From the NCBI GenBank assembly GCA_030737835.1, contig CM060856.1, positions 7,277,245-7,341,244 on the forward strand: a stretch of DNA of 64,000 bases. Direction: 5' to 3'. Source of the stretch: Acorus gramineus (taxonomy: Eukaryota; Streptophyta; Magnoliopsida; Acorales; Acoraceae). Numbering within the stretch: position 1 is the stretch's first letter; every line of letters begins with the position of its first letter. The position numbers and the translations under genes are program-made. The notes beneath the pieces were generated by a model, which was not told the DNA's origin, searched no databases, and saw only the letters and a list, made by a program, of their open reading frames with translations. Below, one piece after another: positions 46,902 through 63,707 of the stretch.

Positions 46902-47220
46902 GGGATTTTAGTTTTAAGTCCCCGCAAACCATCATATTTAGTGATCGATCCCTCCCTTCTTCGTATTTAGGTTTTAGTCCCCAGATTTAAATGATAGTTC
47001 CTTTTTAGTCCCTGAGAGGGACCTATCCATAAATTATTTAATTTATTTTTTAATCCCTGAGAGGAACATATCCATAAATTATTTAATTTATTTTTTAATC
47101 CCTGTGAGGGACCTATCCATGAATTATCCTTTAAATCGGGGGACTAAAACCTAAATACGAAGAAGGGAGGGATCGATCACTAAATATGATGGTTTGTGAG
47201 GACTTAAAACTAAAAATCCC
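46902..47220. mobile_element. Foldback Mutator-type MITE, perfect 9-bp duplication
   Basis: The target duplication tatattttt is identical at 46893-46901 and 47221-47229. Ends are gggattttagttttaagtcc and its near-perfect complement. The arms extend about 90 bp, with words gatcgatccctcccttctt on one side and the complement on the other. The loop has repeated gagaggga-type words. No coding content. Confidence 0.92.
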
Positions 47221-47469
47221 TATATTTTTTCCATTAAGATGTGATAAAAGTAATTTAAATTACTGTTTTACCCTTAACTATCTAAATATCCATAGTAAAA
47301 ATCAATTAATTAATTCTAGATATACTTTATGAAAATCAACTTATACAATAATTAATTCTTCAAATACATCTTAATGCATTTTTGTGAGAATTAAATTACA
47401 TAATAATTAATTACAAGGTGAAAAAAACCTACCAAAAAAAAGTGAAAACATTATAAAGATTTAATTAAA

Positions 47470-47925
47470 GAAATTTTTAGTTTTAAGTCCCTCTAAACAT
47501 GTCTATTTAGGGATCGGTCCCTCACTTCTTGATATTTATTTTTTAGTCCCCATATTCAACCGCCTATTTGGTTTTAGTCCCTCCGTCAAACGTCCGTCCA
47601 TACACCGTTAATTTGTGAAATAAAATTTTATTTTTTAGTCCCCATAAACTATGTTATTTAGTTATCAGTCCATCTAAACTATGTTATTTAGTGATTGGTC
47701 CCTGTAAAATATGAAGAAGGGAGGGAATAATTACTAAATAACATAGTTTACAGGGACTTAAAAATAAATTATATTTCACAAATTAACAGTGTATGGACGG
47801 ACGTTTGACGGAGGGACTAAAAACCAAATATACGGTTGAATATGGGGACTAAAAAAGAAATATCAAGAAGTGAGGGACTGATCCCTAAATATACATGTTT
47901 ACAGAGACTTAAAAATAAAAATCCC
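47470..47925. mobile_element. Related foldback MITE, longer arms
   Basis: The left end (gaaatttttagttttaagtcc) and the complement of the right end (gggatttttatttttaagtc) belong to the same family as the 319-bp element at 46902. Flanks ttaattaaa and tatattaaa match at seven of nine positions. The arms include cgtccgtccatacaccgtt and its complement, so the RNA would fold into a long hairpin. Confidence 0.8.
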
Positions 47926-48415: not shown

Positions 48416-51400
48416 CAGTGTTCTGATATGCGGGATGCGGTTTCCGTGCGGCTAGGGTACCGCACAGAGTATATGCAGTATGCGGGAGTATATGCGGGAG
48501 TATATGCGGTTCTATAATTTTTTATTAATAAAAATTAAAAAATGAATTATTCTATAGTGATTATTTATAAACAAGAGTTAACAAGCTAATATCATAAATT
48601 TAAATAAATCTAACCTTTTATGTCAATAATCCAAAGGAGTTGTAAAATAATATCCTGCAACAATGAACAATCCATTCAATAATTTAGTAGAAACACGGTG
48701 GCACCTATAATACAATAAAAATGCATAAATTAGATATATAAGTCTATTTAACCATAAGTATTCAATTCAAATGACATGCACAAACACAATTTAGCAATGA
48801 AACATGATCACATATTCACATGAGACATGAAAGTGATGAAACATTTAAACATAAAACAAAGTAGAATATAGTTCACATAAGTACATAACATAATAAAACA
48901 AAAGTTCACACAAATACACAATCAGTCTACAAATAAAACAATATAAATTAGTCCGATTCCCATTCAATACTAGCATTAGAGACATCATCATCAGTCTCAT
49001 CATCAGGGATGTCATCAATCTCATCTAACTCATGCATGTCCTCATCAATATCAAGCAATCGTGATGAAGTAGACGTGGAAGGCTCTCCTCTTCCTGTCAG
49101 TCCAGATTCAGGGAAGACCTCCTCCTCTGCATCCTTTTCAGCAATCCACTTGTAAGCATGAGCACGATCTTTCGAAGAAAGAGGATCTTTACCACTTTGG
49201 GCCCTTTCTTTCTTTCGATCCATGAGCTTGGCATTGAATTGAACATATACCAAGTCATTTAACTTTTAGACTTCAAGTCTATTTCTTTTCTTTGAATGAA
49301 TCTGTAAATAAAATATAGTAAATTCATAATCAATAAAAAGTTGTAAATTTGTAAAAAAGTGAATAGCAAAATAAAAATAAATTACCCCCTCAAAAGAACT
49401 CCAGTTTCTCTCACACCCAGAAGAAGATGCAGTGAGATTCAATATTTTGCAAGCCATTAATTGCAAATGCGGTGTATCCAATCCATGCACGTCCCACCAG
49501 TTAGCTACACAATAAGATTTCAAGTGTTAACAAAGTACATGAGCATTTAAATAAATGTAGAAAGCAAATAATATATTATTCACAATTAAATATTTATTAC
49601 CAGGATTGTAGTCATCATTGTTAATGGATCGTTGCAACACAGCTAATGGCTTTCCAAAGAGTCCATCGGCATTCTTATATGCAATCAATTCTTTCCTTGT
49701 AATTACATCTTGAATTTCCAAGGCAGGGTAGAAAATCTCAATGCATTCCCGCAAATGACTCTTCAATTCCCTGTTGCTTTCAATGAAAGTACGGTCTCTA
49801 AAAAAGTAGTAGGGGTTGAGATAATAAGCTGCACAATGAAGAGGACCATCTAATCTTCCTTTTGACTTCGAGATAATAGGAGCAATAAAAGGCATGTAAG
49901 ATGATTCAACATCCTTAAACAATTCCATTATCTCCTTTTTAGCTTCCTCAAGACCACCATATACAAAACCCATTGAAGGTCTCTGTTCACCATCTACAAT
50001 GCGAAGGAGATGACACAAAGGTGCAAAGATTTTAATGGCCAATGCAACTTGATTCCAAAAACTTGGACTTATCACAATATCTGATGCCTTTTGCCCTTTC
50101 CTTGTGTGATACCACTTGCAATCCCTCCATTCTTCAGAAGTAAACATCAATCTAAGTTTATCCTTCTTTGAATATATACTCTCTAAGGAAAGAAACATAG
50201 TGGCAAATCTTGTGGCTCCAGGTCTCACAATTTCTCCTTTTTCGGTAAAGCGGCGCATCATACTCAAGATCTTCGTGTGGCTATAAATGAAAGTAGCAAC
50301 AGTTCTAGCCTTCTCCACGGCACTATTTACCTTTGGTTCTTTGCCAATTTCCTCGAGAAACCAACAGATTGGTGACCATCATTCAGCATGGAGGTTTCAA
50401 ATCTCAAGGCATTAAAATTGATAATTATGGAGCTTAATTTAATTGCTTTAGTTTGTGAACAATGTTGGAGCTCCTTTAGAATAGTATTTGCATGTTTATC
50501 AGTGTGACTCCTTTGTTACATTTCTTCCTAAAGCAGTACTTATTTTTGAAAAAAAGGTGAGAGCTCACTGCCTGTATTTAAAATAAATAGCAATGGAAAA
50601 CTCAGGAACATAGGCCTTAGCTCCAACAAAACAAGTTAGAAAACCAAGCAGATAGGTGAGATATGTGATATGTCCAAGAAATTTATACAAACTTAGGATT
50701 AACCCAAATTCAGCAAACTACCTATTTACCTCAAAACCCCCACCCCAACAACAAATAAGAATTAGAAATATCCACTCTTCTCTGGAGAAGTCCAATGTTT
50801 AAAATTAAAAGGATGCTTTTACCCCATTCTTTTTGGGTCCCAAAAACGTGAATCAACATTATCAAATTCTTGCTTGTCACTACCTACTCTGCTTCAGTGG
50901 AATGTGATAGAGGAGTGACAATGCAAACACCAATATTATACACCATCAAGCAAAGAAAGTAAAATCAGTACATCTTAACATGTAAAAGAGGGAGTTAGAT
51001 CACCGATTCACCCCGTGAAGGAGGCCAGACCGCTAGAGGAGTCGCTGGCTCGCGCCGGACCGCCAGAGGAGTCGCTGGCTCGCTGCGTGAAGGAGGCCGG
51101 AGTCGCCGGACCGCCAGAGGAGTCGCCGGCCGGAGTCGAAGAAGAAGAAATCTTGAAGAAGTCTCGCCTGCGTGGATTCGGCGATTCGGCGTTGAAGAAG
51201 TCCCGAGGAAGAAGAAGTATTGAAGAAGAAGAAAACTAGGGCAGGTCGAGCCGTCGAGGGATTCAAGGTCGAGGGATTTTGTTTTTTGTTTTTAGTGCTA
51301 AACGGGTTGACCCGTTTAGCACTCCTATTACTGTGCGCCCGCTTAAGCGGACGCATAAGCGGGATCGGGCCGCATATGCGGGCCCGACCCGCATAGCCCC

Positions 51401-51685: not shown

Positions 51686-52732
51686 CAATTAAAAATCATA
51701 TTTTAAAATATCCATTTAAATATATTATTATTTGAAAAACTGATTATATAAAAGTTGAATCTAAAGTTACGTTTGTTTTGCAAACTATTTGAAAAATATG
51801 ATTTTATATAAATAATTAAAGAAAACTTAGGAACAAACTTTTTTTGCTTTATAAAAAACATAATTTTTACACTAAAAACTAAAACAAATTTTTAATTAAC
51901 CATGTTTTTTTGTATCATTTGAAGACTCCTTTTGTTTTTTCGATATCACATTTTATAAACCTCTATTCACATTTTTTTACATTTTATCAACGACTTATTG
52001 ATAATCAACTAAACAACAAAAACTTCTTCATTATATTTTTCAATGAGAATAACTAAAAACACAATCAAATATAAAATATCTTATTCCATCGATATTATAT
52101 ATCCCGGAATAGCTTATGTTGTTACTTGCTATTTAAACAATGGTTAAGATGGCAAGAGAATAAATCATCTATTTGCTTGAATAAATCAGATCAATGCCCA
52201 ATTCCCAGTGTTAAGACGCAATTTCCTCTGGTATACAAAAAGTTAATAAACGAAACCTTGACTCTCTTTTCGTTTTTACAACCACATTTATACATAGTAA
52301 ATGAAATTGGATTATTAAACACGTACTCATTTTCTCAATGCATACTCCATCACAAAAAAAAAGAAGAATGCATTCAATTTATAAGCATATGCATTTCATC
52401 TTTTATATAAAAAATCAAGTATATATTCTAAACATTCACATTGATCGTTAATATGGTACTTATGTAAGGTGTTTATGCTGCTTTTTGATGCACGCATTTC
52501 GAAAGTGTTCTTTTATGGCATTGACAAACTCACATATTTTATACATTAAACGCTTGATCCAAAATGTAGACTTTTAAATGCGGGTTCCTATTTGGAATGG
52601 GCTGGGATCCAGTTGAAAATGATTTTGATCATTCTGATCAATATCAAACTGTAGAGCTAATTGTTGGATACATGTATCACTCTCTTATTGAATACTGATG
52701 ATCCCGACCAAACTCAGACTTGACTCAATGAA
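51686..52732. other. 3' flank of the STP gene, AT-rich
   Basis: No gene is present. The stretch from 52113 onward is the start of the segment that recurs at 59312 onward. The frame at 52126-52410 is in this duplicated flank and has no similarity to known proteins. Confidence 0.45.
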
Positions 52733-54900
52733 TCATTGTTTTATCACCCCATCAACGCCACCACCTGACTCACTCTCCTCCCCCTCCACAAACCTCCTCC
52801 AGAACCAATGCTCCCCCCACACCCTCTCCATCCTCTCCATCGGCACGTCTTTTGTCTCCGGCAACAACACGTAAACAAACCCCGTCATCACTGCCACCCA
52901 ACCCGCGAAGAAGAAGAAGATCCCCGCCTTCATGTGGCACAGCATCGCCAGGAACGTCTGCGCCACCGCGAACGTGAACAAGAAATTCACCGCGACCGAC
53001 ACGCTCTGCCCCGCTGACCGCACCTCGAGCGGGAATATCTCGCTCGGCACGAGCCACCCGAGCGGGCCCCACGACCACCCAAACCCGGCCACGTACGCGC
53101 ACACCGCGACCAGCACCGCGAACGCCCAGCCCTTCCCCATAAGCTCGCGAGGGTCGTCGCCGAGACGCGCGGCGAGGACCGCGCCAATGACGAGTTGGGA
53201 CGCGAGCATCTGGAGACCGCCCGCGATGAAGAGGGTGCGGCGGCCGAGGCGGTCGACCGCGAGCATGGAGAGGAAGGTGGAGGTGGTGCCGACGAGGCCC
53301 GTTACGATGGAGGACATGAGGGACGCGCTCTCGCCGAGGCCCATCGTGCGGAAGAGGAGGGGGGCGTAGAACGCGATCACATTGATCCCCGTCACCTGTG
53401 TTCGATTATTTCATTAAATTGTATGACATGAGTTTGTTATATACATTGAGGCTTGTTTGGATGTGCGGTTGAGACGATAAAATCTGACATTTGAAAAGTA
53501 TTATTTCAATACTGTGCTTCAAACTTTTTTTTTTTTTTTGTGGGAGGGACTAAAACGGTACATATCTTTTAAATCTATGATTAAAATCAAAATATGAAGA
53601 AGTAAGTGATCAATCACTAAATCCTATAGTTTATAAGAATTTAAAAATAAAAAACTTTTTTTTTTATGAATGTTTGTTTAGCGTTCAGTTTTTCAATCTT
53701 CTCTTGTTTTTCTAAAAAAGCATCGTTTGAAAAGCTAGCAAAATAATATTTTTCAGAAATTCAGTTTGAAACGTCGGATTTTAAAATTTTTAGTGTTTCA
53801 GTAGCACATATAAACACAGTTGAAACAACCAAATGTTCAAGCCCGTTTGCATCGGTGGTTGGAAAATTCTAACCTTTTCCAATACTAAATATGTTCTACC
53901 GCAAATCTAAAACGGGACATTAAGCTAAAACCAATGTTTAAATGCTTATGCAAAATCAATTATTAGATAGATAGTTTTAAACACGAATTTTTTATTTAGT
54001 TTTCGTTTCAAATTTAATTTTTTTATATTTTAAAATTAACAAAAAAAAAACTGTATTTAAGGGGAAAAAAATTAACAGTGTAACATTTGCATCACAGATT
54101 ATTTTAATTAATTTAGAGCACAAGTTGTTTTTCAAAATCATTTCTATTCCCCTCACCTGCTGGAAGAAGGGGATAGCGAAGGCCATCACCAACTGGGGGC
54201 GGTACCGCCTCCGCATGAAGTCCCGAAAGGGACGTCGCGAGGACTTCGACGTGTTGCAAGCCGAGACGAGGTCCTCAATCTCCGCACCTACATCAGGCGT
54301 GCCGCGGATCTTCCTGAGGAGGATCGTGGCCCGGTGGAGGTCATCCTCGCGGCCGCGCTGGACGAGGCTATTGGGGGTCTCTGGAAGGAAGAGCGCACCA
54401 AGGGCTAGGGCGGAGGCAGGCACGGCGGCCAGGGCGAGGGACAACCGCCAGCCCCAGCCGCCGGAGATTTTCTCGGTGCCGTAGTTGATGAGGTTGGCGG
54501 AGAGGGCGCCGATGCCGACACTGAACTGGAAGCCATTGTTGAAGGCTCCCCTATACTGGGGAGGGGCCATCTCTGATAGATACAATGGGACTGACTGTAG
54601 ATAGAAAAACAAATGGAATCAATAACAGAAAATTTTGAATTTCTATTTTGTTGTAATGGTTTGTGTTTTTGTGATTTGGGCCGGATCCAGGCAATACTAG
54701 GCCCACGGGTGGCTGTCTTTATGCAATCACTGCTTACGTGTGATTCTGGTCCCAATCATTGTAATTGATAATATGGCAATGATTGGTGGATCTAGGTCAG
54801 GATTCTTGCAAGAAAAATCTTTTTTGACTCCTTAGTCCCAGTATACAAGATTATCCCTTTCCAGCGAGTGATCGAGGGGTATTGGGGATCATGTTGGGTA
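52113..54900. repeat. Tandem segmental duplication, copy 1 (visible part)
   Basis: Starting at cttatgttgttacttgct, this stretch matches 59312 onward. The offset to the second copy is 9110 bp in the exon region, of which about 1.9 kb is a later LINE insertion. Similarity runs through STP exon 4, intron 3, exon 3 and into intron 2. Copy 1 must continue to about 59,311, where copy 2 begins. Confidence 0.9.
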
Positions 54901-56735
54901 AAAACCTTTTCTATCAAACTAGTCACCTAGATGCTCTCTTTCCTTTCCTGTTGGAATTGAATAGTTAATTCAGCCATTACTCTTTTTGAAATAAAAATAA
55001 TCACATTTTCATTAAAAAAAAAAATACAAGACTACCCCTATTAAGGCCTCGTTTGGTTTGTGTCATTTTGGGATTGAATTTGATTCCATGTGAGATTATC
55101 ATGAAAGTGTATAAAATACAGTGTTTGGTTAGTGGTAATCTTGATGGTAATTGTGGATCTACTTGAATTAAAATCCATCCATGTGGAAAAATAGGGTGGA
55201 ATCAGATTCCCACCCTTTGTGGTGGTAATCTCAAATTCTACAAGAAATCATAAATTAAATTACTATTATACCGTTTATAAATTAATGAAATTACTATGTA
55301 TATCCATTATTCTAAAATAAATAGCCTCTTTTTCTTTCTTTTTTTTCCCCACAACTTATATAATGGGTTTATATAGTCATTTTGATTTTTTAATTAAAAA
55401 TTTATGTTATAATTTTTATATGTGATGTGAAAAAATTTAATTGTGTATTAGATATTGATTTATATTTTTAAATTTAGTTTTTATTTTTGTAGATGGGTTT
55501 GGATATTATTATAATTGGTATAATGTGTGATGTGGGTTTAGGCCTAAAGCAATACCTCCAAATCCGTAACTAATAAAATTGGTTATTTAATTTTTAGGGA
55601 AGTTCATAATATTCAACTGATTTAGAAAAATTACTATTATTATATGTTTAATTACATAATTGATTATTTTGTTTATTTGCATTCATTAAATATTTATAAA
55701 AATATTTATAAAAAATTTACTTTTTTTATTATTGTGATATGGGTAAAGAAATAAATTTTGCAAGTATATATAATAGTAAGGGTATTTTAGACATTTAAAT
55801 AAAATTTCTTATCATTTTCCATGTATGAACCGAACACTTAGAAAATGATTCTTTGGTGAAATCCACTAGCGAACCAAACAATCTGATGGAATTAGGATTC
55901 TTTGTAAAATAATTCTGGATAAACTGATTCCTGGTAAAGTAATTTCACTCAAAAAAATGACACGGATCAGATGGGGCCTAGAGTGTGAGATTTATAATAA
56001 AAGATTGAAAATATAGATCCAGTTCTAACTTGATCTAAACCTCTCGGTTGTCTTAGTACTTAAACATAGAGGATGATTTGATCTCGTGCAATGGATCATA
56101 TTCACAATCAACCACTGAGTAAAATATTTCAGGAACTTATAAGTGTAGTCTATGGTCCCAACTACCATTATTGAGTCATCACGGGTTGTGTGAACCAAAC
56201 CTGATTTGCAAATCCGACGCCAACGCCAAGTAAGACCCGGCCAAGGATGAGCATGTACACGTCCACGGCAGCGCCGCCAAGCGCCGCACCAGAGAGGAAG
56301 GCGGCCCCACCAATGAGGATGGAGGTCCTCCGACCGAAGGCCCTGGTCACGGAGGCGGCGAAGAAGGTGGCCACGAGTCCGGCGATGTAGAGGGAGGAGG
56401 TGAAGGTTGTGAGGAGCTGGCTGTCGAACTTGCAGTAGTTGCTGACGTTAGAGTCGGCCCTCATCCTCGCATACACGTCTGGGAAGAACTTCTTCAAGAA
56501 GGGTCCCATGGACGTCACGCCACCTTTCCATATCCCATCAGATTTTGTCAATCTCTAACAATTGTCATGCGTGATTGAACTGAGAGAGTGAGAGAGTGAG
56601 ACCTGAGATTCCGATGTCGTAGCCAAATATGACGCCGCCCATGGCGGCCATCACACAGGAGAGGACGACGAAGGACGTTATTCGGCCGTTGTAGGGGTCG
56701 CCGGAGTTGGTTGTTGTGGAAAGACTGGCTGCCAT
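52733..56735 (-). CDS. STP-family hexose/H+ symporter, copy 1
   Basis: STP proteins import hexoses with protons across the plasma membrane. Exons (minus): 56735-56603, 56523-56201, 54594-54157, 53395-52733; total 1557 bp, 518 aa, with 12 predicted membrane helices of the major facilitator fold. Features: FGYDIGISGGVTSM with the proton-binding Asp at about 40, RVLLGVGVGFANQ, YLSEMAPPQYRGA, LPETPNSL, IPFFQQVTGIN (Q297, Q298, N303), DRLGRRTLF, WGPLGWLVPSEIFPLEVRS (W412) and PETKDVPMERM. Cys at about 75 and 451 match the disulfide that ties the STP lid domain. The usual sugar-contact Asn of helix 7 (motif GLVN) is Gly at about 334. Intron 2 (1.6 kb) holds a MITE. GC-rich antisense frames here are shadows. 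Confidence 0.95.
53540..53672. repeat. Half foldback-MITE remnant in STP copy 1 intron 3
   Basis: The sequence gggagggactaaaac through aatttaaaaataaaaaac is one arm of the same family as 58265-58539. The other arm is missing. The same remnant is at about 62,648-62,763 in copy 2, so it predates the duplication. Confidence 0.7.
55045..55978. mobile_element. Long Tourist-like element in STP copy 1 intron 2
   Basis: Left end ggcctcgtttggtttgtgtc and the complement of the right end (ggccccatctgatccgtgtc) are inverted repeats; flanks taa and tag resemble a diverged TWA duplication. The 934-bp body is AT-rich and non-coding. Whether copy 2 has it cannot be seen because the window ends first. Confidence 0.65.
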
Positions 56736-57625
56736 GGCTGTTTTTCAGATGGTTTGTGTGTGTGTTGGGGGGGATAGGGTGGGCTTGTAATAATGTTTTG
56801 GGAAACTTTTTCTTTTCCTTGCTGGATTGGTTGCTGTGTGTGTTGACTGTTGACTTTTAAGAGGAAAGAATAAAATGATGAGGTGTCGGACAGTGTATGA
56901 ATTAGGCCATCATTTTCTGTTATGTCTCAATCAGTGTGACTGAATTCTATATGCATACTTATTTTTTATCTGATGTGCAGGTTTTTCTTGGCTATCATTT
57001 CACTGGAGGTTTTTCTGGCCATTGTCAGGGGTTCAGATACTCTTCATAACAATTACATGAAAATCATATCTTATCAAATAACATATGCCACGTAGACGAT
57101 AAAATAATAAATCTATGATTTGTAATGTTATTCATGATAAAAACTCATTCATGTAATCTTTAATTTCTTTTAAATTACTTATGTGATATTTATTTATTGA
57201 TCAACATAAAGATTTTTTTACATAGAAAATAGAGAATCTCATTCCATGATTAATTAGAGGTATAAAATGCACATGTATGTTTTGCATCTACAGTGTATAT
57301 TGTATTCGACCCCGGTGCAAGCGGGTTTTATTTGTTGTTCATTATGAGCGAGCACGACAGGCAGGGTTGGACTCATTGACTAAACACAAACAACCACTTT
57401 TTAACCAAACTTTCTTTGTCTTATAAACTTTGTATTACTGATATTAATATTAAGTCTAAAACTTTCGGTCTTAGTAGGTATGGGCGGAGACGCACTAGCT
57501 ATAAGCCTAGGTCGTCACGCTTTCAAAGAGTGTTTACCTCTTTCGGGTTCATTTCTTCCTTTCACTAAAAAGTATGGAGAAAGGAGGCAATGCAATGAAC
57601 TTTCTCACCACAGATGTATGATGGA
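56736..57625. other. Upstream region of STP copy 1
   Basis: This should contain the STP promoter and leader on the minus strand. G/T-rich sequence precedes the start codon; no confident TATA box was found. The rest is AT-rich intergenic DNA. Confidence 0.4.
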
Positions 57626-58190: not shown

Positions 58191-59118
58191 CTAAGATTCA
58201 TCAAACCGGAATGGGCCCAGACGAATTTATGAAATGGGCCCCGAAGTATATATGAAAAAATATAGGGTTTTTTATTTTTAAGTCCCCATAAACCATAGGA
58301 TTTAGTGATTGATCCCTCACATCTTCAGATTTTGGTTTTAGTCCCCAGATTTAAAGGATATGTTCCTTTTTAGTCCTGAGAGGGACCTATCCCTAAATTA
58401 TTTGATTTTCTGTTTAGTCCCTGGGAGGAACTAAAAATGAATATATCCTTTAAATCTGGGGATCAAAACTAAAATACGAAGAAGTGAGGGATCGATCATT
58501 AAATCCTATGGTTTATGGGGACTTAAAAATAAAAAACCCAAAAATATAATGACTAACAACAAAATTAATCTTCAAAATAAATGAATAAAAACAAAACAAA
58601 AATCACACTACGAATAAGAAAAAATTTATTTAAGTTTTCATTTTTAAGTAACAATAAGAGAAAAAAAAACAAACTCTTTAAAATGTGAGATTTGTTAATC
58701 AGAATATTACATTCTTTGTAAATTTAAATACAAAACTAAATTCTTGTATAATTGAAAATTTTAAATATGTTATGAAAAACTAAAAAAGGATAAAAAGAAA
58801 TGAATGAATGATTTAAAAAAAAAATTTAAAAATCCAAATGTAAAAATAATTAAATCAATTTACAATTAAAAAATCGAAGATGTAAATTAGAATTATGTAA
58901 GAAAACACAATAAAATTTAAAAATACATATTAAAAGGATAATATCCTCTTGAGAAAAGAATAAATTTTAAAATTTTAATACTAAAAATAATCAAAATAAT
59001 TCTAATACAACCGTATTTTTAGAGATTTAGGCCCCTGTAACTTTAATACAACCATATTTCAAGGAATTTGGGGCTCTAGGCAATTGCCTTGGTTGTCTAC
59101 CTTTAGGGCCGGCTCTGC
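58188..59118. mobile_element. Non-autonomous element with gcaga/ccctaa ends
   Basis: The left end gcagaccctaagattc and the complement of the right end (gcagagccggccctaaagg) are imperfect inverted repeats resembling a widespread plant hAT-like family. It contains a nested foldback MITE (58265-58539). The centre is AT-rich without coding content. No target duplication was confirmed. Confidence 0.5.
58265..58539. mobile_element. Foldback Mutator-type MITE, perfect 9-bp duplication
   Basis: The duplication aaaaatata is identical at 58256-58264 and 58540-58548. Ends are gggttttttatttttaag and its exact complement; arms of about 95 bp contain ccataaaccataggattta and its complement. The 275-bp length is close to the 319-bp relative at 46902-47220. 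Confidence 0.93.
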
Positions 59119-59402
59119 ACATGGGGTGTGATATATGTAAAAGACTAGGAACTTTTGTTCTGTAATAGGTAGTATCTCTATGTTCAACTTCGTTAAGCGA
59201 TAGCTCCGTCTCTACCTCTCTACAAAGGCGAAGGAAGCTCAGTAAAGGAGAAGGTGAGGGTAAAAAGAAGGAGTGGTGGCAGGGGACTACTATAGTGGCT
59301 TTGATCGGGGTCTTATGTTGTTACTTGCTATTTAAACAATGGTTAAGATGGCAAGAGATTAAATCATCTACTTGCTTGAATAAATCAGATCAATTCCCAG
59401 TG

Positions 59403-61294
59403 TTTTTTTTTTTAATAAAGGTAGATGTTTGCTACCAGATTTCATTTCTGAATTCGAATTACAAATTCTGAATGGAGGGAGAAGAGAGTAAAATAAAGCT
59501 AGAAAGAAAGATATTCACAACAAGAGAGCTCTCGTGGCCTGGGTTAGAAGAGGCATCTAACCGACCTAAGCGAGATCAAAAGCCCACCCTGTCACCCTGT
59601 CATGCGCATGGCCCCTTCACTAAACTGGACCTCCCCCGCTCTCGCAATGTGTCGGCCCCAATCTGACATATACCCTTGAAACATGTCCCACATGTTTTCT
59701 TGATACACCCTCGTCCCTTTGAAGATGGCTTCGTTGCGCGTCTTCCAAATAGTCCACGCCCCCGTCGGTACTATGGATTGCGAAACCACCGCAGCCATGG
59801 AGTTATTGTTTGCTCGCTTCATTGCTTTCCCCGCCGCCCATAGCTCCTCCACTGAATGGAATGATTTGAAGGCCCGTGAACCTCCCCACCAACGTCCAAA
59901 ACTCCTGAGCCACTTCGCACGTACAGAACAGGTGCTCGACTGTCTCCGTAGCCCCCAAGCAAAGGGCACACACCGTGGAGTCTTTTGGCGCCCATCTTGC
60001 ACGATACGCCCTTGTCATTAGACGTTCTAAGAATACAAACCACACAAAGACCTTTATCTTCAATGGGATCTTTGGCCGCCACGTTTGGGCAAACTTCGCG
60101 CTCGGCGTCGACCCCCCCCCCCCCCCGCCTGTTCAGTCGACCACCTGTTGTACGCACTCTTGACTGAGTGCGTCCCTGACCGGTTGAACCTCCATCTACA
60201 CCGATCCTCCTCGGACACCTGAAGGTTGTGCAGCCCGAGTCTCTCCAGCAGCACCATGAACTGTCTGGTTTCGTCCCCGGTAAGTCTAGCCCGTAACAGC
60301 TCGATCAACCACTCTCCATCTTCTGGTTGATAGAATTCCCCCACCGTCCCTTCCTTCTTATTCGCCATACGATAAATATCAGGGGCCAGGTCGCACAGTT
60401 TCTCTACCTCGCTCCACCGATCCATCCAAAAATGCACAGAGGCGCACTTACCAATCTTCCATTCGATTACGGAATCCATGTCATCGCGCTCCGCGAAGAG
60501 TCCCTTGCAAATCTGGGACGTGCGAGCATTCATCACAGGCCAGCGCTGCTCACCAATACCCCCACCACCGTATCGGTCCCTAAAGAGGACGCACCACAGC
60601 GATTCGCACCTGTTAAACCAACGCCAGGTCCATTTTGAGAGAAGGGCCCGATTCATCACACGGAGATCAAGCACACCCAAACCTCCCTCCTTTTTGGGTA
60701 TACACACCGTCCCCCAGACCACCAAGTGTGAAGCTCGTCGCGACTCATCTTCTCCAGATACAATCCATGTGCTCAAGCACCCCGGCTGGAATTCTAAATA
60801 TTGAGAGATAGAAGATTGGTAGGTTCATTATTACCGCTTGCAAAAGCGTCAGCCGCTCCCCCCCCCCCCCCACCTAGCTAAGAAGCTTCCCACACAATCC
60901 TGCCAGATGTCGTTCGAATCGCTCGATGAGAGGGTCCCACTGCTCCTTCTTGAGCCGACCTTTGACCAAAGGTAGCCCCAGGTGTTTAGTAGGCAACACA
61001 GCCGTCAAACAACCCATCCATGCCGCAAGTTCGGCTTCCTCCTCCATCGACGTGTTCACCCCATGCATGACACTCTTTTGCATATTCAGCTTGAGCTCCG
61101 AAAGCATACCAAAACATAACACAATGAAGCGAAGGCCCCTCACGCTTCGTCCCGACACTTCGCTTAACAGAATTGTGTCATCCGCGTATTGAAGCACTGA
61201 CACCTTCCTACCCGCAATTGAGTTGGCTAGGCCCGAGATCCAACCCGTCTCTTCTGCCCTCGCGCATAGTCTCTGCAAGACGTTGGCCACCAAC
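59403..61294 (-). mobile_element. 5'-truncated LINE (RT, zf-RVT) inside copy 2
   Basis: An 11-bp duplication, aattcccagtg, flanks it (59392-59402 and 61295-61305), and the low-coordinate end starts with a T run, the tail on the minus strand. Reading from 61,294 downward the frame carries the reverse-transcriptase motif QYADDTILLSE, then PTKHLGLPLVKGRLKKEQWD. A following block starts near 60,776 (KEGGLGVLDLRVMNRALLSKW), and the zinc-binding end reads KDSTVCALCLGATETVEHLFC. Frames are interrupted at C/G homopolymers near 60,107-60,126 and 60,859-60,872. The insertion begins in the middle of the reverse transcriptase, so it was never autonomous. It is absent from copy 1. Confidence 0.95.
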
Positions 61295-61305
61295 AATTCC
61301 CAGTG

Positions 61306-61842: not shown

Positions 61843-63707
61843 TCATTGTTTCATCACCCCATCAGCGCCACCACCTGACCCACTCTCGTCCCCCTCCACA
61901 AACCTCCTCCAGAACCAATGCTCCCCCCACACCCTCTCCATCCTCTCCATCGGCACGTCCTTTGTCTCCGGCAAAAACAAGTAAACAAACCCCGTCATCA
62001 CCGCCACCCACCCCGCGAAGAAGAAGAAGATCCACGCCTTCATGTGGCACAGCATCGCCAGGAACGTCTGTGCCACCAAGAACGTGAAAAAGAAATTCAC
62101 CGCGACCGACACGCTCTGCCCCGCGGACCGCACCTCGAGCGGGAATATCTCGCTCGGCACGAGCCACCCGAGCGGGCCCAACGACCACCCGAACCCGGCC
62201 ACGTTTGCGCACACCGCGACCAGCACAGCGAACGCCCAGCCCTTCCCCAAAAGCTCGAGAGGGTCGTCGCCGAGACGCGCGGCGAGGACCGCGCCAACGA
62301 CGAGCTGGGACGCGAGCATCTGGAGACCGCCCGCGATGAAGAGGGTGCGGCGGCCGAGGCGGTCGACCGCGAGCATGGAGAGGAAGGCGGAGGTTGTGTT
62401 GACGAGGCCCGTTACGATGGAGGACATGAGGGACGCGCTCTCGCCGAGGCCCAACATGCGGAAGAGGAGGGGGGCGTAGAACACGATCGCATTGATCCCC
62501 GTCACCTGTGTTCGATTATTTCATTAAATTGTATGACATGAGTTTGCTATATACATTGAGGCTTGTTTGGATGTGCGGTTGAGACGATAAAATCTGACAT
62601 TTGAAAAGTATTGTTTCAGTACTATGCTTCAAACATTTTTTTTTTTTTGTGGGAAGGACTAAAAGGATATATATCCTTTAAATCTGATGATTAAAATCAA
62701 AATATGAAGAAGTGAGGGATTGATCACTAAACCCTATAGTTTATAAGGACTTAAAAATAAAAAAACCCTTCTTTTATGAATGTTTGTTTAACATTCAGTT
62801 TTTCAATCTTCTCTTTTTTTTTAAAAAAAATAGAGTTTGGAAAGCTAGCAAAATAATATTTTTCAGAAATTGAGTTTTGAAACGTCGGATTTTAAAATTT
62901 TTTGTGTTTCAATAGCACATATAAACACAGTCAAAACAACCAAATGTTCAAGCCCGTTTGCATCCGTGGCTGGAAAATTCTAACCTTTTCCAATGCTAAA
63001 TATGTCCTACCGCGAATCTAAAACGGGACATTAAGCTAAAACCAATGTTTAAATGCTTATGCAAAATCAATTATTAGATAGATAGTTTTAAACACGAATT
63101 TTTTAATTTAGTTTTTGTTTCAAATTTAATTTTTTTATATTTTAAAATTAACAAAACAAAACTGTATTTAAGGAGAAAAAAATTAACAGAGTGTAACATT
63201 TGCATCACAGATTATCTTAATCAATTTAGAGCACAAGTTGTTTTTCAAAATCATTTCTATTCCCCTCACCTGCTGGAAGAAGTTGATGGCGAAGGCCATC
63301 ACCAACTGGGGGCGATACCGCCTCCGCATCAAGTCCCGAAAAGGGCGTCGCGAGGATTTCGACGTGGTGCAAGCCGAGACGAGGTCCTCAATCTCCGCAC
63401 CTACATGAGGCGTGCCGCGGATCTTTCTGAGGAGGATCGTGGCCCGGTGGAGGTCATCCTCGCGGCCGCACTGGACGAGACTATTGGGGGTCTCTGGAAG
63501 GGGGAGCGTGCCGAGGGCTAGGGCGGAGGCAGGCACGGCGGCCAAGGCAAGGGACAACCGCCAGCCCCAGCCGCCAGAGATTTTACTAGTGCCGTAGTTG
63601 ATGAGGTTGGCGGAGAGGATGCCAATGCCGACACTGAACTGGAAGCCATTGTTGAAGGCCCCCCTATACTGGGGAGGGGCCATCTCTGATAGATACAATG
63701 GGACTGA
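61843..63707 (-). CDS. STP-family hexose/H+ symporter, copy 2, partial
   Basis: Exon 4 (62505-61843) and exon 3 (63707-63270) are present with intact splice sites and frame, giving the C-terminal 366 residues. Exons 1 and 2 should lie beyond the right edge. It differs from copy 1 by about 20 of 220 residues in exon 4 and 9 of 146 in exon 3. It keeps the helix-7 Asn (GLVN, position 334) that copy 1 lacks. It has Asn instead of Pro in the IPxFQQ motif (position 294), Leu instead of Trp in WSWGPLGW (position 407) and Cys instead of Arg in LVQRG. The lid cysteine at about 451 is kept. No stop or frameshift is seen, so it may be functional; its 5' half cannot be judged here. Confidence 0.88.
62645..62768. 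repeat. Half foldback-MITE remnant in STP copy 2 intron 3
   Basis: Same position and same arm as in copy 1 (53540-53672): gggaaggactaaaagg through cttaaaaataaaaaaacc. It is an allelic-position duplicate created by the segmental duplication. Confidence 0.7.

What the first reader, a model, noticed from the sequence alone, without database searches (positions are those of the whole stretch)
53287..53292. STP copy 1 has Gly where sugar porters have the conserved sugar-contact Asn
In helix 7, copy 1 reads GLVGTT (codon GGC) and copy 2 reads GLVNTT (codon AAC). This Asn is conserved in STP proteins and aligns with GLUT1 N317, a sugar ligand. The other core residues (FQQ, TGIN, GPLGW) are intact in copy 1, so loss of this one contact may change substrate or affinity, or mark loss of transport.
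Basis: partly seen in the sequence, partly recalled or inferred. Interest (0 to 1): 0.75.

Follow-up and report, generated by a model that had tools for sequence, protein, structure and literature searches.

The report
Plant sugar transporter with altered pocket
One of two neighbouring plant sugar-transporter genes has glycine instead of asparagine where the protein touches the far end of a glucose molecule; the change looks inherited within its branch of the family and probably weakens glucose binding, and it is the neighbour with the textbook residue that is changing fast.

Summary
The Gly/Asn difference is real: GGC at 53288-53290 in copy 1, AAC at 62398-62400 in copy 2. It lies in helix 8, not 7, at STP10 Asn332, which contacts the C6 hydroxyl of glucose (PMC6345825).

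The 'loss' reading fails. Of 16 intact-looking STP loci readable in this genome, 9 have Asn, 4 Leu, 2 Gly, 1 His; the second Gly is the nearest gene outside the pair. Polarised by that gene, 20 amino-acid changes fall on copy 2, 3 on copy 1 (14 of 37 undecided), while silent changes are even (14 and 13): copy 1 is the constrained gene. Copy 2 has broken two positions that are invariant in the 14 other rows.

Best explanation: copy 1 is an intact H+ symporter, probably of the STP3 type, that reads the C6 hydroxyl weakly: low glucose affinity, pentose uptake spared. STP10 N332A still transports; yeast Hxt36 with Gly or Ala here favours xylose. The STP3 link rests on letters recalled from memory. 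The pair's ancestral residue is probably Gly, but unproven. No assay could be run.

The parts
56603..56735 (-). copy 1 exon 1 (codons 1-44 and first base of 45)
   Evidence: spliced frame without stops, GT-AG intron ends
56201..56523 (-). copy 1 exon 2 (lid domain, proton-pair Arg140)
54157..54594 (-). copy 1 exon 3
52733..53395 (-). copy 1 exon 4 (helices 7-12, stop codon)
53288..53290 (-). copy 1 Gly334 codon GGC, the STP10 Asn332 site
54505..54507 (-). copy 1 Ala182 codon GCC, the STP10 Ile184 site, second altered pocket residue
63270..63707 (-). copy 2 exon 3 (exons 1-2 lie beyond the window, at 65355-65223 and 65143-64821 in window-equivalent numbering, locus L009)
61843..62505 (-). copy 2 exon 4
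62398..62400 (-). copy 2 Asn334 codon AAC
63618..63620 (-). copy 2 Ile182 codon ATC (STP10 Ile184 site)
62179..62181 (-). copy 2 Leu407 codon TTG; Trp in the 14 other rows, in copy 1 and in the C4 gene
62032..62034 (-). copy 2 Trp456 codon TGG; Gly in the 14 other rows, in copy 1 and in the C4 gene
63282..63284 (-). copy 2 Asn294 codon AAC; Pro in 9 and Gln in 4 of 13 other rows
52113..57306 (.). copy 1 side of the tandem duplication unit (partner from 59312 in the window to 65946 in window-equivalent numbering, with a 1.9 kb insertion)
   Evidence: about 93% identical stretches

Best explanation
Copy 1 is an intact plant sugar/H+ symporter of the STP family, probably of the STP3 type. Its helix-8 Gly334 takes the place of the Asn that in STP10 touches the C6 hydroxyl of glucose, and Ala182 takes the place of an Ile of the hydrophobic patch. 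The proton pair, the lid disulfide and the other polar contacts are kept. Shown: the residues, the intact gene, the constraint on copy 1, and a second Gly gene in the same branch. Inferred: with the C6 reader gone and the patch weakened, glucose (hexose) affinity is low, in the mM rather than the uM range, while pentoses, which have no C6 group, are carried about as well as before. Also inferred: Gly is the older state of this branch, and copy 2, a tandem duplicate evolving almost without constraint on amino acids, carries Asn by reversal.
For: Site equals STP10 Asn332, which contacts the glucose C6 hydroxyl. [quoted passage not shown] In yeast Hxt36, Gly and Ala at this site gave fast growth on xylose in excess glucose and are named as the best for selectivity; N367A raised glucose Km from 6 to 171 mM and lowered xylose Km from 108 to 25 mM. 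Gal2 N376G keeps 0.84 of the growth rate on arabinose. Copy 1: open frame, GT-AG introns; proton pair and lid cysteines kept; six lid aromatics kept. Polarised by the C4 gene: 20 amino-acid changes on copy 2, 3 on copy 1, 14 of 37 undecided; silent base changes 14 and 13; Fisher p = 2.3e-4; omega about 0.05 for copy 1 and 0.74 for copy 2; end branch 0 against 0.066. Second Gly in the C4 gene, same branch at 100/99 support.
Against: No transport data for either copy. Counting changes with held sequences only, Asn kept in copy 2 with two separate gains of Gly costs as much as one gain and one reversal; the reversal is favoured only if the recalled AtSTP3 is right. At site 182 (copy 1 Ala, C4 gene Tyr, copy 2 Ile, 12 of 13 other rows Ile) the simplest reading is that copy 2 kept the old residue. 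The C4 gene has three further pocket changes (Gln177 to His, Ile184 to Tyr, Phe401 to Tyr), so it is not a clean witness that Gly is compatible with ordinary transport. If all undecided changes are given to copy 1, the asymmetry weakens to p = 0.053. Yeast Hxt proteins are distant facilitators; the effect in a high-affinity symporter may differ. PMC8298354 Table 1 lists only glucose for AtSTP3, whereas PMC4809294 and PMC12845465 include xylose.
Confidence: 0.55

Rival explanations
1. Asn is the ancestral state of the pair and copy 2 simply kept it; copy 1 and the C4 gene gained Gly separately, perhaps by selection for another sugar.
For: Equal cost to the reversal on the tree of held sequences (4 changes in all). 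Copy 2 also has the family-typical Ile at site 182. A reversal by chance to exactly the family residue at a two-base change is not likely a priori.
Against: It would put two-base pocket changes on copy 1, whose other amino-acid changes are few (3 of 23 polarised). Recalled AtSTP3 with Gly would then need a third separate gain.
Confidence: 0.25
2. The Gly is real but has little effect: water or neighbouring side chains take over, and both copies transport glucose alike.
For: Other polar contacts are intact in copy 1; N332A alone did not abolish STP10 transport.
Against: Replacements of this Asn in Hxt36, Hxt7, Hxt11 and Gal2 lowered glucose affinity in the tables and text seen; copy 1 also lacks the Ile184 patch residue.
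Confidence: 0.15
3. Copy 1 has lost transport and is on its way to a pseudogene.
For: A sugar-contact Asn and a patch Ile are changed.
Against: Open 518-codon frame, intact splice sites, omega about 0.05 (at most 0.27 if all undecided changes are given to it), intact proton pair and lid.
Confidence: 0.05

Closest known systems
Arabidopsis STP3 (low-affinity monosaccharide/H+ symporter, Buettner et al. 2000, seen only as cited)
   Same: With letters recalled from memory it joins copy 1, copy 2 and the C4 gene in one branch (100/99, 99/99), is 64% identical to copy 1, and has Gly at this site.
   Different: Not checked against a database record; the recalled AtSTP3 has Phe at the Ile184 site and Ser at the Asn433 site, where copy 1 has Ala and Asn.
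STP10 (PDB 6H7D, 7AAQ, 7AAR)
   Same: Best solved relative (E 1.9e-188), same lid cysteines, proton pair and 10 of 13 sugar-contact residues.
   Different: Asn332 is Gly, Ile184 is Ala, Leu43 is Ile in copy 1.
Yeast Hxt36 N367G/A, Hxt7 N370S, Hxt11 N366T, Gal2 N376 variants
   Same: Same helix-8 position changed; glucose recognition weakened, pentose uptake kept or improved.
   Different: Laboratory mutants of low-affinity facilitators; copy 1 is a natural plant symporter gene.
STP7- and STP14-like genes of the same genome (C6_14983, C6_14991; C7_13048, C8_11409)
   Same: Also lack the Asn; they have Leu. AtSTP7 is listed for arabinose and xylose, AtSTP14 for galactose and arabinose.
   Different: A separate branch of the tree; the STP7/STP14 labels rest on recalled letters.

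Membership tests
STP (sugar transport protein) family | Sugar porter fold family by profile | tested here: met
   Pfam Sugar_tr E 1.3e-115; NCBIfam sugar porter TIGR00879 354 bits over cut-off 237.8
STP (sugar transport protein) family | Lid domain with Cys77-Cys449 and its aromatic cluster | tested here: met
   Both Cys and the six aromatics kept in both copies
STP (sugar transport protein) family | Proton pair Asp42/Arg142 | tested here: met
   Both kept in both copies
STP (sugar transport protein) family | Helix-8 Asn332 sugar contact | tested here: not met
   Gly in copy 1; but Asn is absent in 7 of 16 STP loci of this genome, so it does not define the family
STP3 subclade | Groups with STP3 in a tree, apart from the other STP subclades | tested here: inconclusive
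   Groups at 100/99 and 99/99, but the AtSTP3 letters were recalled, not fetched
STP3 subclade | Low glucose affinity | not testable with these tools
   needs an uptake assay
High-affinity STP10-type hexose symporter | Full set of 13 sugar-contact residues | tested here: not met
   Copy 1 is identical at 10 of 13, copy 2 at 12 of 13

The most novel reading that the evidence does not exclude
The helix-8 position is a natural substrate dial in plant STPs (Asn: high-affinity hexose; Leu: pentose or galactose; Gly: low-affinity), and this tandem pair is a natural test of it: after duplication copy 2 regained both the Asn and the patch Ile of a high-affinity pocket, while copy 1 stayed a low-affinity, pentose-tolerant carrier.
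Probability: 0.17. Interest if true: 0.6.

Novelty: new member of a known kind. Interest (0 to 1): 0.38.

Why it matters
The position that yeast engineers change to make hexose carriers accept pentoses varies naturally among the STP genes of one plant genome. If the residue predicts the substrate class, genome annotations of plant sugar transporters could be refined by one site, and the unexplained low glucose affinity of STP3 would have a structural cause. For the finding itself it matters that the odd copy is the constrained one and the textbook copy is drifting.

Tried and rejected
Searches for relatives outside this genome gave nothing: single protein in viral contigs, alignment A1 in viral contigs and in genome contigs. 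A text search for five peptides of the Gly type found 0 papers. In one cassava STP motif table the consensus for this stretch has Asn (VITGAVNVIST); a consensus does not exclude Gly members. Papers wanted but not held: PMC5841717 on STP7 and PMC12054785 on STP6/STP10.

Gene conversion of copy 2 from another STP: the codons around sites 182 and 334 of 14 other loci (the C4 gene and 13 more) show no obvious donor; base differences between the copies are not significantly clustered (19 neighbour pairs, 15.6 expected, p = 0.17) and codons with more than one change are 6 against 3.3 expected, p = 0.09. A formal conversion test was not done. Copy 2 as a plain pseudogene: no indel in 1557 coding bases, 5.35 expected for one copy, p = 0.005; absence of stops is uninformative, p = 0.30. 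The indel rate used 17 events in 2476 bases of introns and 3' flank; the 5' flank (9 events in 640 bases) was left out, which makes the test milder.

Rows dropped before counts: seven broken STP-like stretches (C4_27360, two on C128, two in L055, two in L056; all read Asn) are not among the 16; five more distant sugar-porter places (L001/L038, L031, L032, L033, L034) are not counted as STP. C6_14991 is in the count of 16 but not in the tree. C38_49 is partial (246 columns), and columns 34-44 of C1_15088 were masked in the trees because overlapping matches filled them wrongly. No structure was predicted.

Full report
What is there. The window is a piece of a 398.6 Mb genome (G000:C10:7277245-7341244) that reads as a plant. 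Two sugar-transporter genes lie in tandem on the minus strand. Copy 1 has four exons (56735-56603, 56523-56201, 54594-54157, 53395-52733), 518 codons and three GT-AG introns. Copy 2 has the same structure; its exons 3 and 4 are in the window (63707-63270, 62505-61843) and exons 1 and 2 lie beyond it. The duplicated unit runs from about 52113 to 57306 on the copy 1 side. The copies differ by 74 of 1557 coding bases, 61 of 1105 in intron 2 and 47 of 759 in intron 3. dN/dS is 0.038/0.083 (NG86) and 0.035/0.116 (ML).

The observation. The codon is GGC (Gly334) at 53288-53290 in copy 1 and AAC (Asn) at 62398-62400 in copy 2. The site aligns with STP10 Asn332. PMC6345825 (passages seen) says that Asn332 contacts the hydroxyl on glucose carbon 6. 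PMC4263072 (passages and section 7 seen) places the same Asn in helix 8 and equates it with XylE Asn325, GLUT1 and the yeast Hxt Asn. Of the 13 STP10 sugar-contact positions (listed in PMC11033725), copy 1 keeps 10, has Ile for Leu43, Ala for Ile184 and Gly for Asn332; copy 2 keeps 12; the C4 gene keeps 8. The proton pair and lid cysteines are kept in both copies, as are the six lid aromatics.

Is Asn the rule? In this genome I could read the site in 16 intact-looking STP loci: Asn in 9, Leu in 4 (C6_14983, C6_14991, C7_13048, C8_11409), Gly in 2 (copy 1 and C4_27987), His in 1 (C1_15088). Seven broken STP-like stretches, left out of that count, all have Asn. The whole-genome search scores only the best candidates, so 16 is a lower bound. 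In the tree of 17 rows (15 loci, STP10, STP6; sites 334 and 182 left out) copy 1, copy 2 and C4_27987 form a branch at 100/99.

Which copy is the odd one? With C4_27987 as outgroup, of 37 amino-acid differences 20 are derived in copy 2, 3 in copy 1, 10 match neither copy and 4 have no outgroup residue; silent base differences split 14 to 13 with 3 undecided; bases in amino-acid-changing codons split 31 to 2 with 11 undecided. Fisher's test gives p = 2.3e-4. If every undecided change is given to copy 1 it is p = 0.053. Omega is about 0.05 for copy 1 and 0.74 for copy 2. On the protein tree copy 1 has an end branch of 0 and copy 2 of 0.066. Copy 1's residue is the commoner one among the 14 other rows at 23 of the 37 sites, copy 2's at 9, and 5 are ties. 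Copy 2 has Leu at Trp407 and Trp at Gly456, both 14 of 14 in the other rows, and Asn at Pro294 (Pro in 9, Gln in 4 of 13). Copy 2 nevertheless has no indel in 1557 coding bases, where 5.35 would be expected for one copy at the rate of the introns and 3' flank (p = 0.005), so it has not been a free pseudogene throughout.

Polarity of the site itself. On held sequences alone, one gain of Gly plus a reversal in copy 2 costs the same as two separate gains; the fewest changes at the site are 4. The excess of changes on copy 2 makes a change there more likely, but at site 182 the simplest reading is that copy 2 kept the old Ile (12 of 13 other rows). AtSTP7 and AtSTP14, also from memory, have Leu and join the Leu loci of this genome (100/97 and 100/100). 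These placements need database records before they count as a test.

How it most likely works. The symport machinery is intact, so copy 1 should still couple sugar to protons. The Asn that reads the C6 group is gone. [quoted passage not shown] In Hxt36, small nonpolar residues Ala and Gly at this site are named as giving the best selectivity for xylose over glucose; kinetics were given for Ala and Ile, not Gly. In Gal2, N376G keeps 0.84 of the growth rate on arabinose. In Hxt11, aliphatic and small polar residues help growth on xylose in glucose, while His, Gln, Lys and Arg do not. The Ile184 site belongs to the hydrophobic patch credited with uM affinity in STP10, and copy 1 has Ala there. 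Both changes point to low hexose affinity with pentoses spared. In Table 1 of PMC8298354 AtSTP3 is the only one of the 13 STPs with a stated affinity that is called low; AtSTP7 is listed for arabinose and xylose, AtSTP14 for galactose and arabinose. PMC4809294 also names STP3 as the exception in glucose affinity. If the recalled residues are right, the Arabidopsis STPs known to be unusual are those without the Asn; this is a hypothesis, not a result.

Verdict. The inference that copy 1 lost a conserved STP feature, with copy 2 as the normal copy, is not borne out. I found no paper in ten searches of the held library that treats natural variation at this site in plant STPs, but those searches were narrow, and the two most relevant papers (STP7; STP6 against STP10) are not held.

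Noticed in passing
59400-61293: A 1.9 kb insertion splits the 3' flank of copy 2; its minus-strand frames (60874-61305, 60060-60824) read like a broken non-LTR reverse transcriptase (YADDTILLS, recognised by eye), though Pfam gives no match at 1e-3.
   Followed up: partly
48948-50378: Minus-strand frames that by eye resemble a hAT-type transposase remnant; no Pfam match at 1e-3.
   Followed up: partly
54595-56200: Intron 2 of copy 1 is about 495 bases longer than that of copy 2, one block near 55120-55600.
   Followed up: no
62646-62775: A short repeat in intron 3 of copy 2 recurs at 58257-58539 and around 47125-47921 in both orientations.
   Followed up: no
L043 (C1:15083000-15092000): An otherwise STP1/STP10-like gene has His at the same helix-8 site; [quoted passage not shown]
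   Followed up: no
L044, L057 (C6:14981500-14998400): A tandem pair of STP7-like genes, both with Leu at the site and Ile for the second Gln of the helix-7 FQQ motif (FQI).
   Followed up: partly
L042 (C4:27985000-27994900): The second Gly gene also has His at Gln177, Tyr at Ile184 and Tyr at Phe401 and no intron 1: an even more altered pocket.
   Followed up: partly
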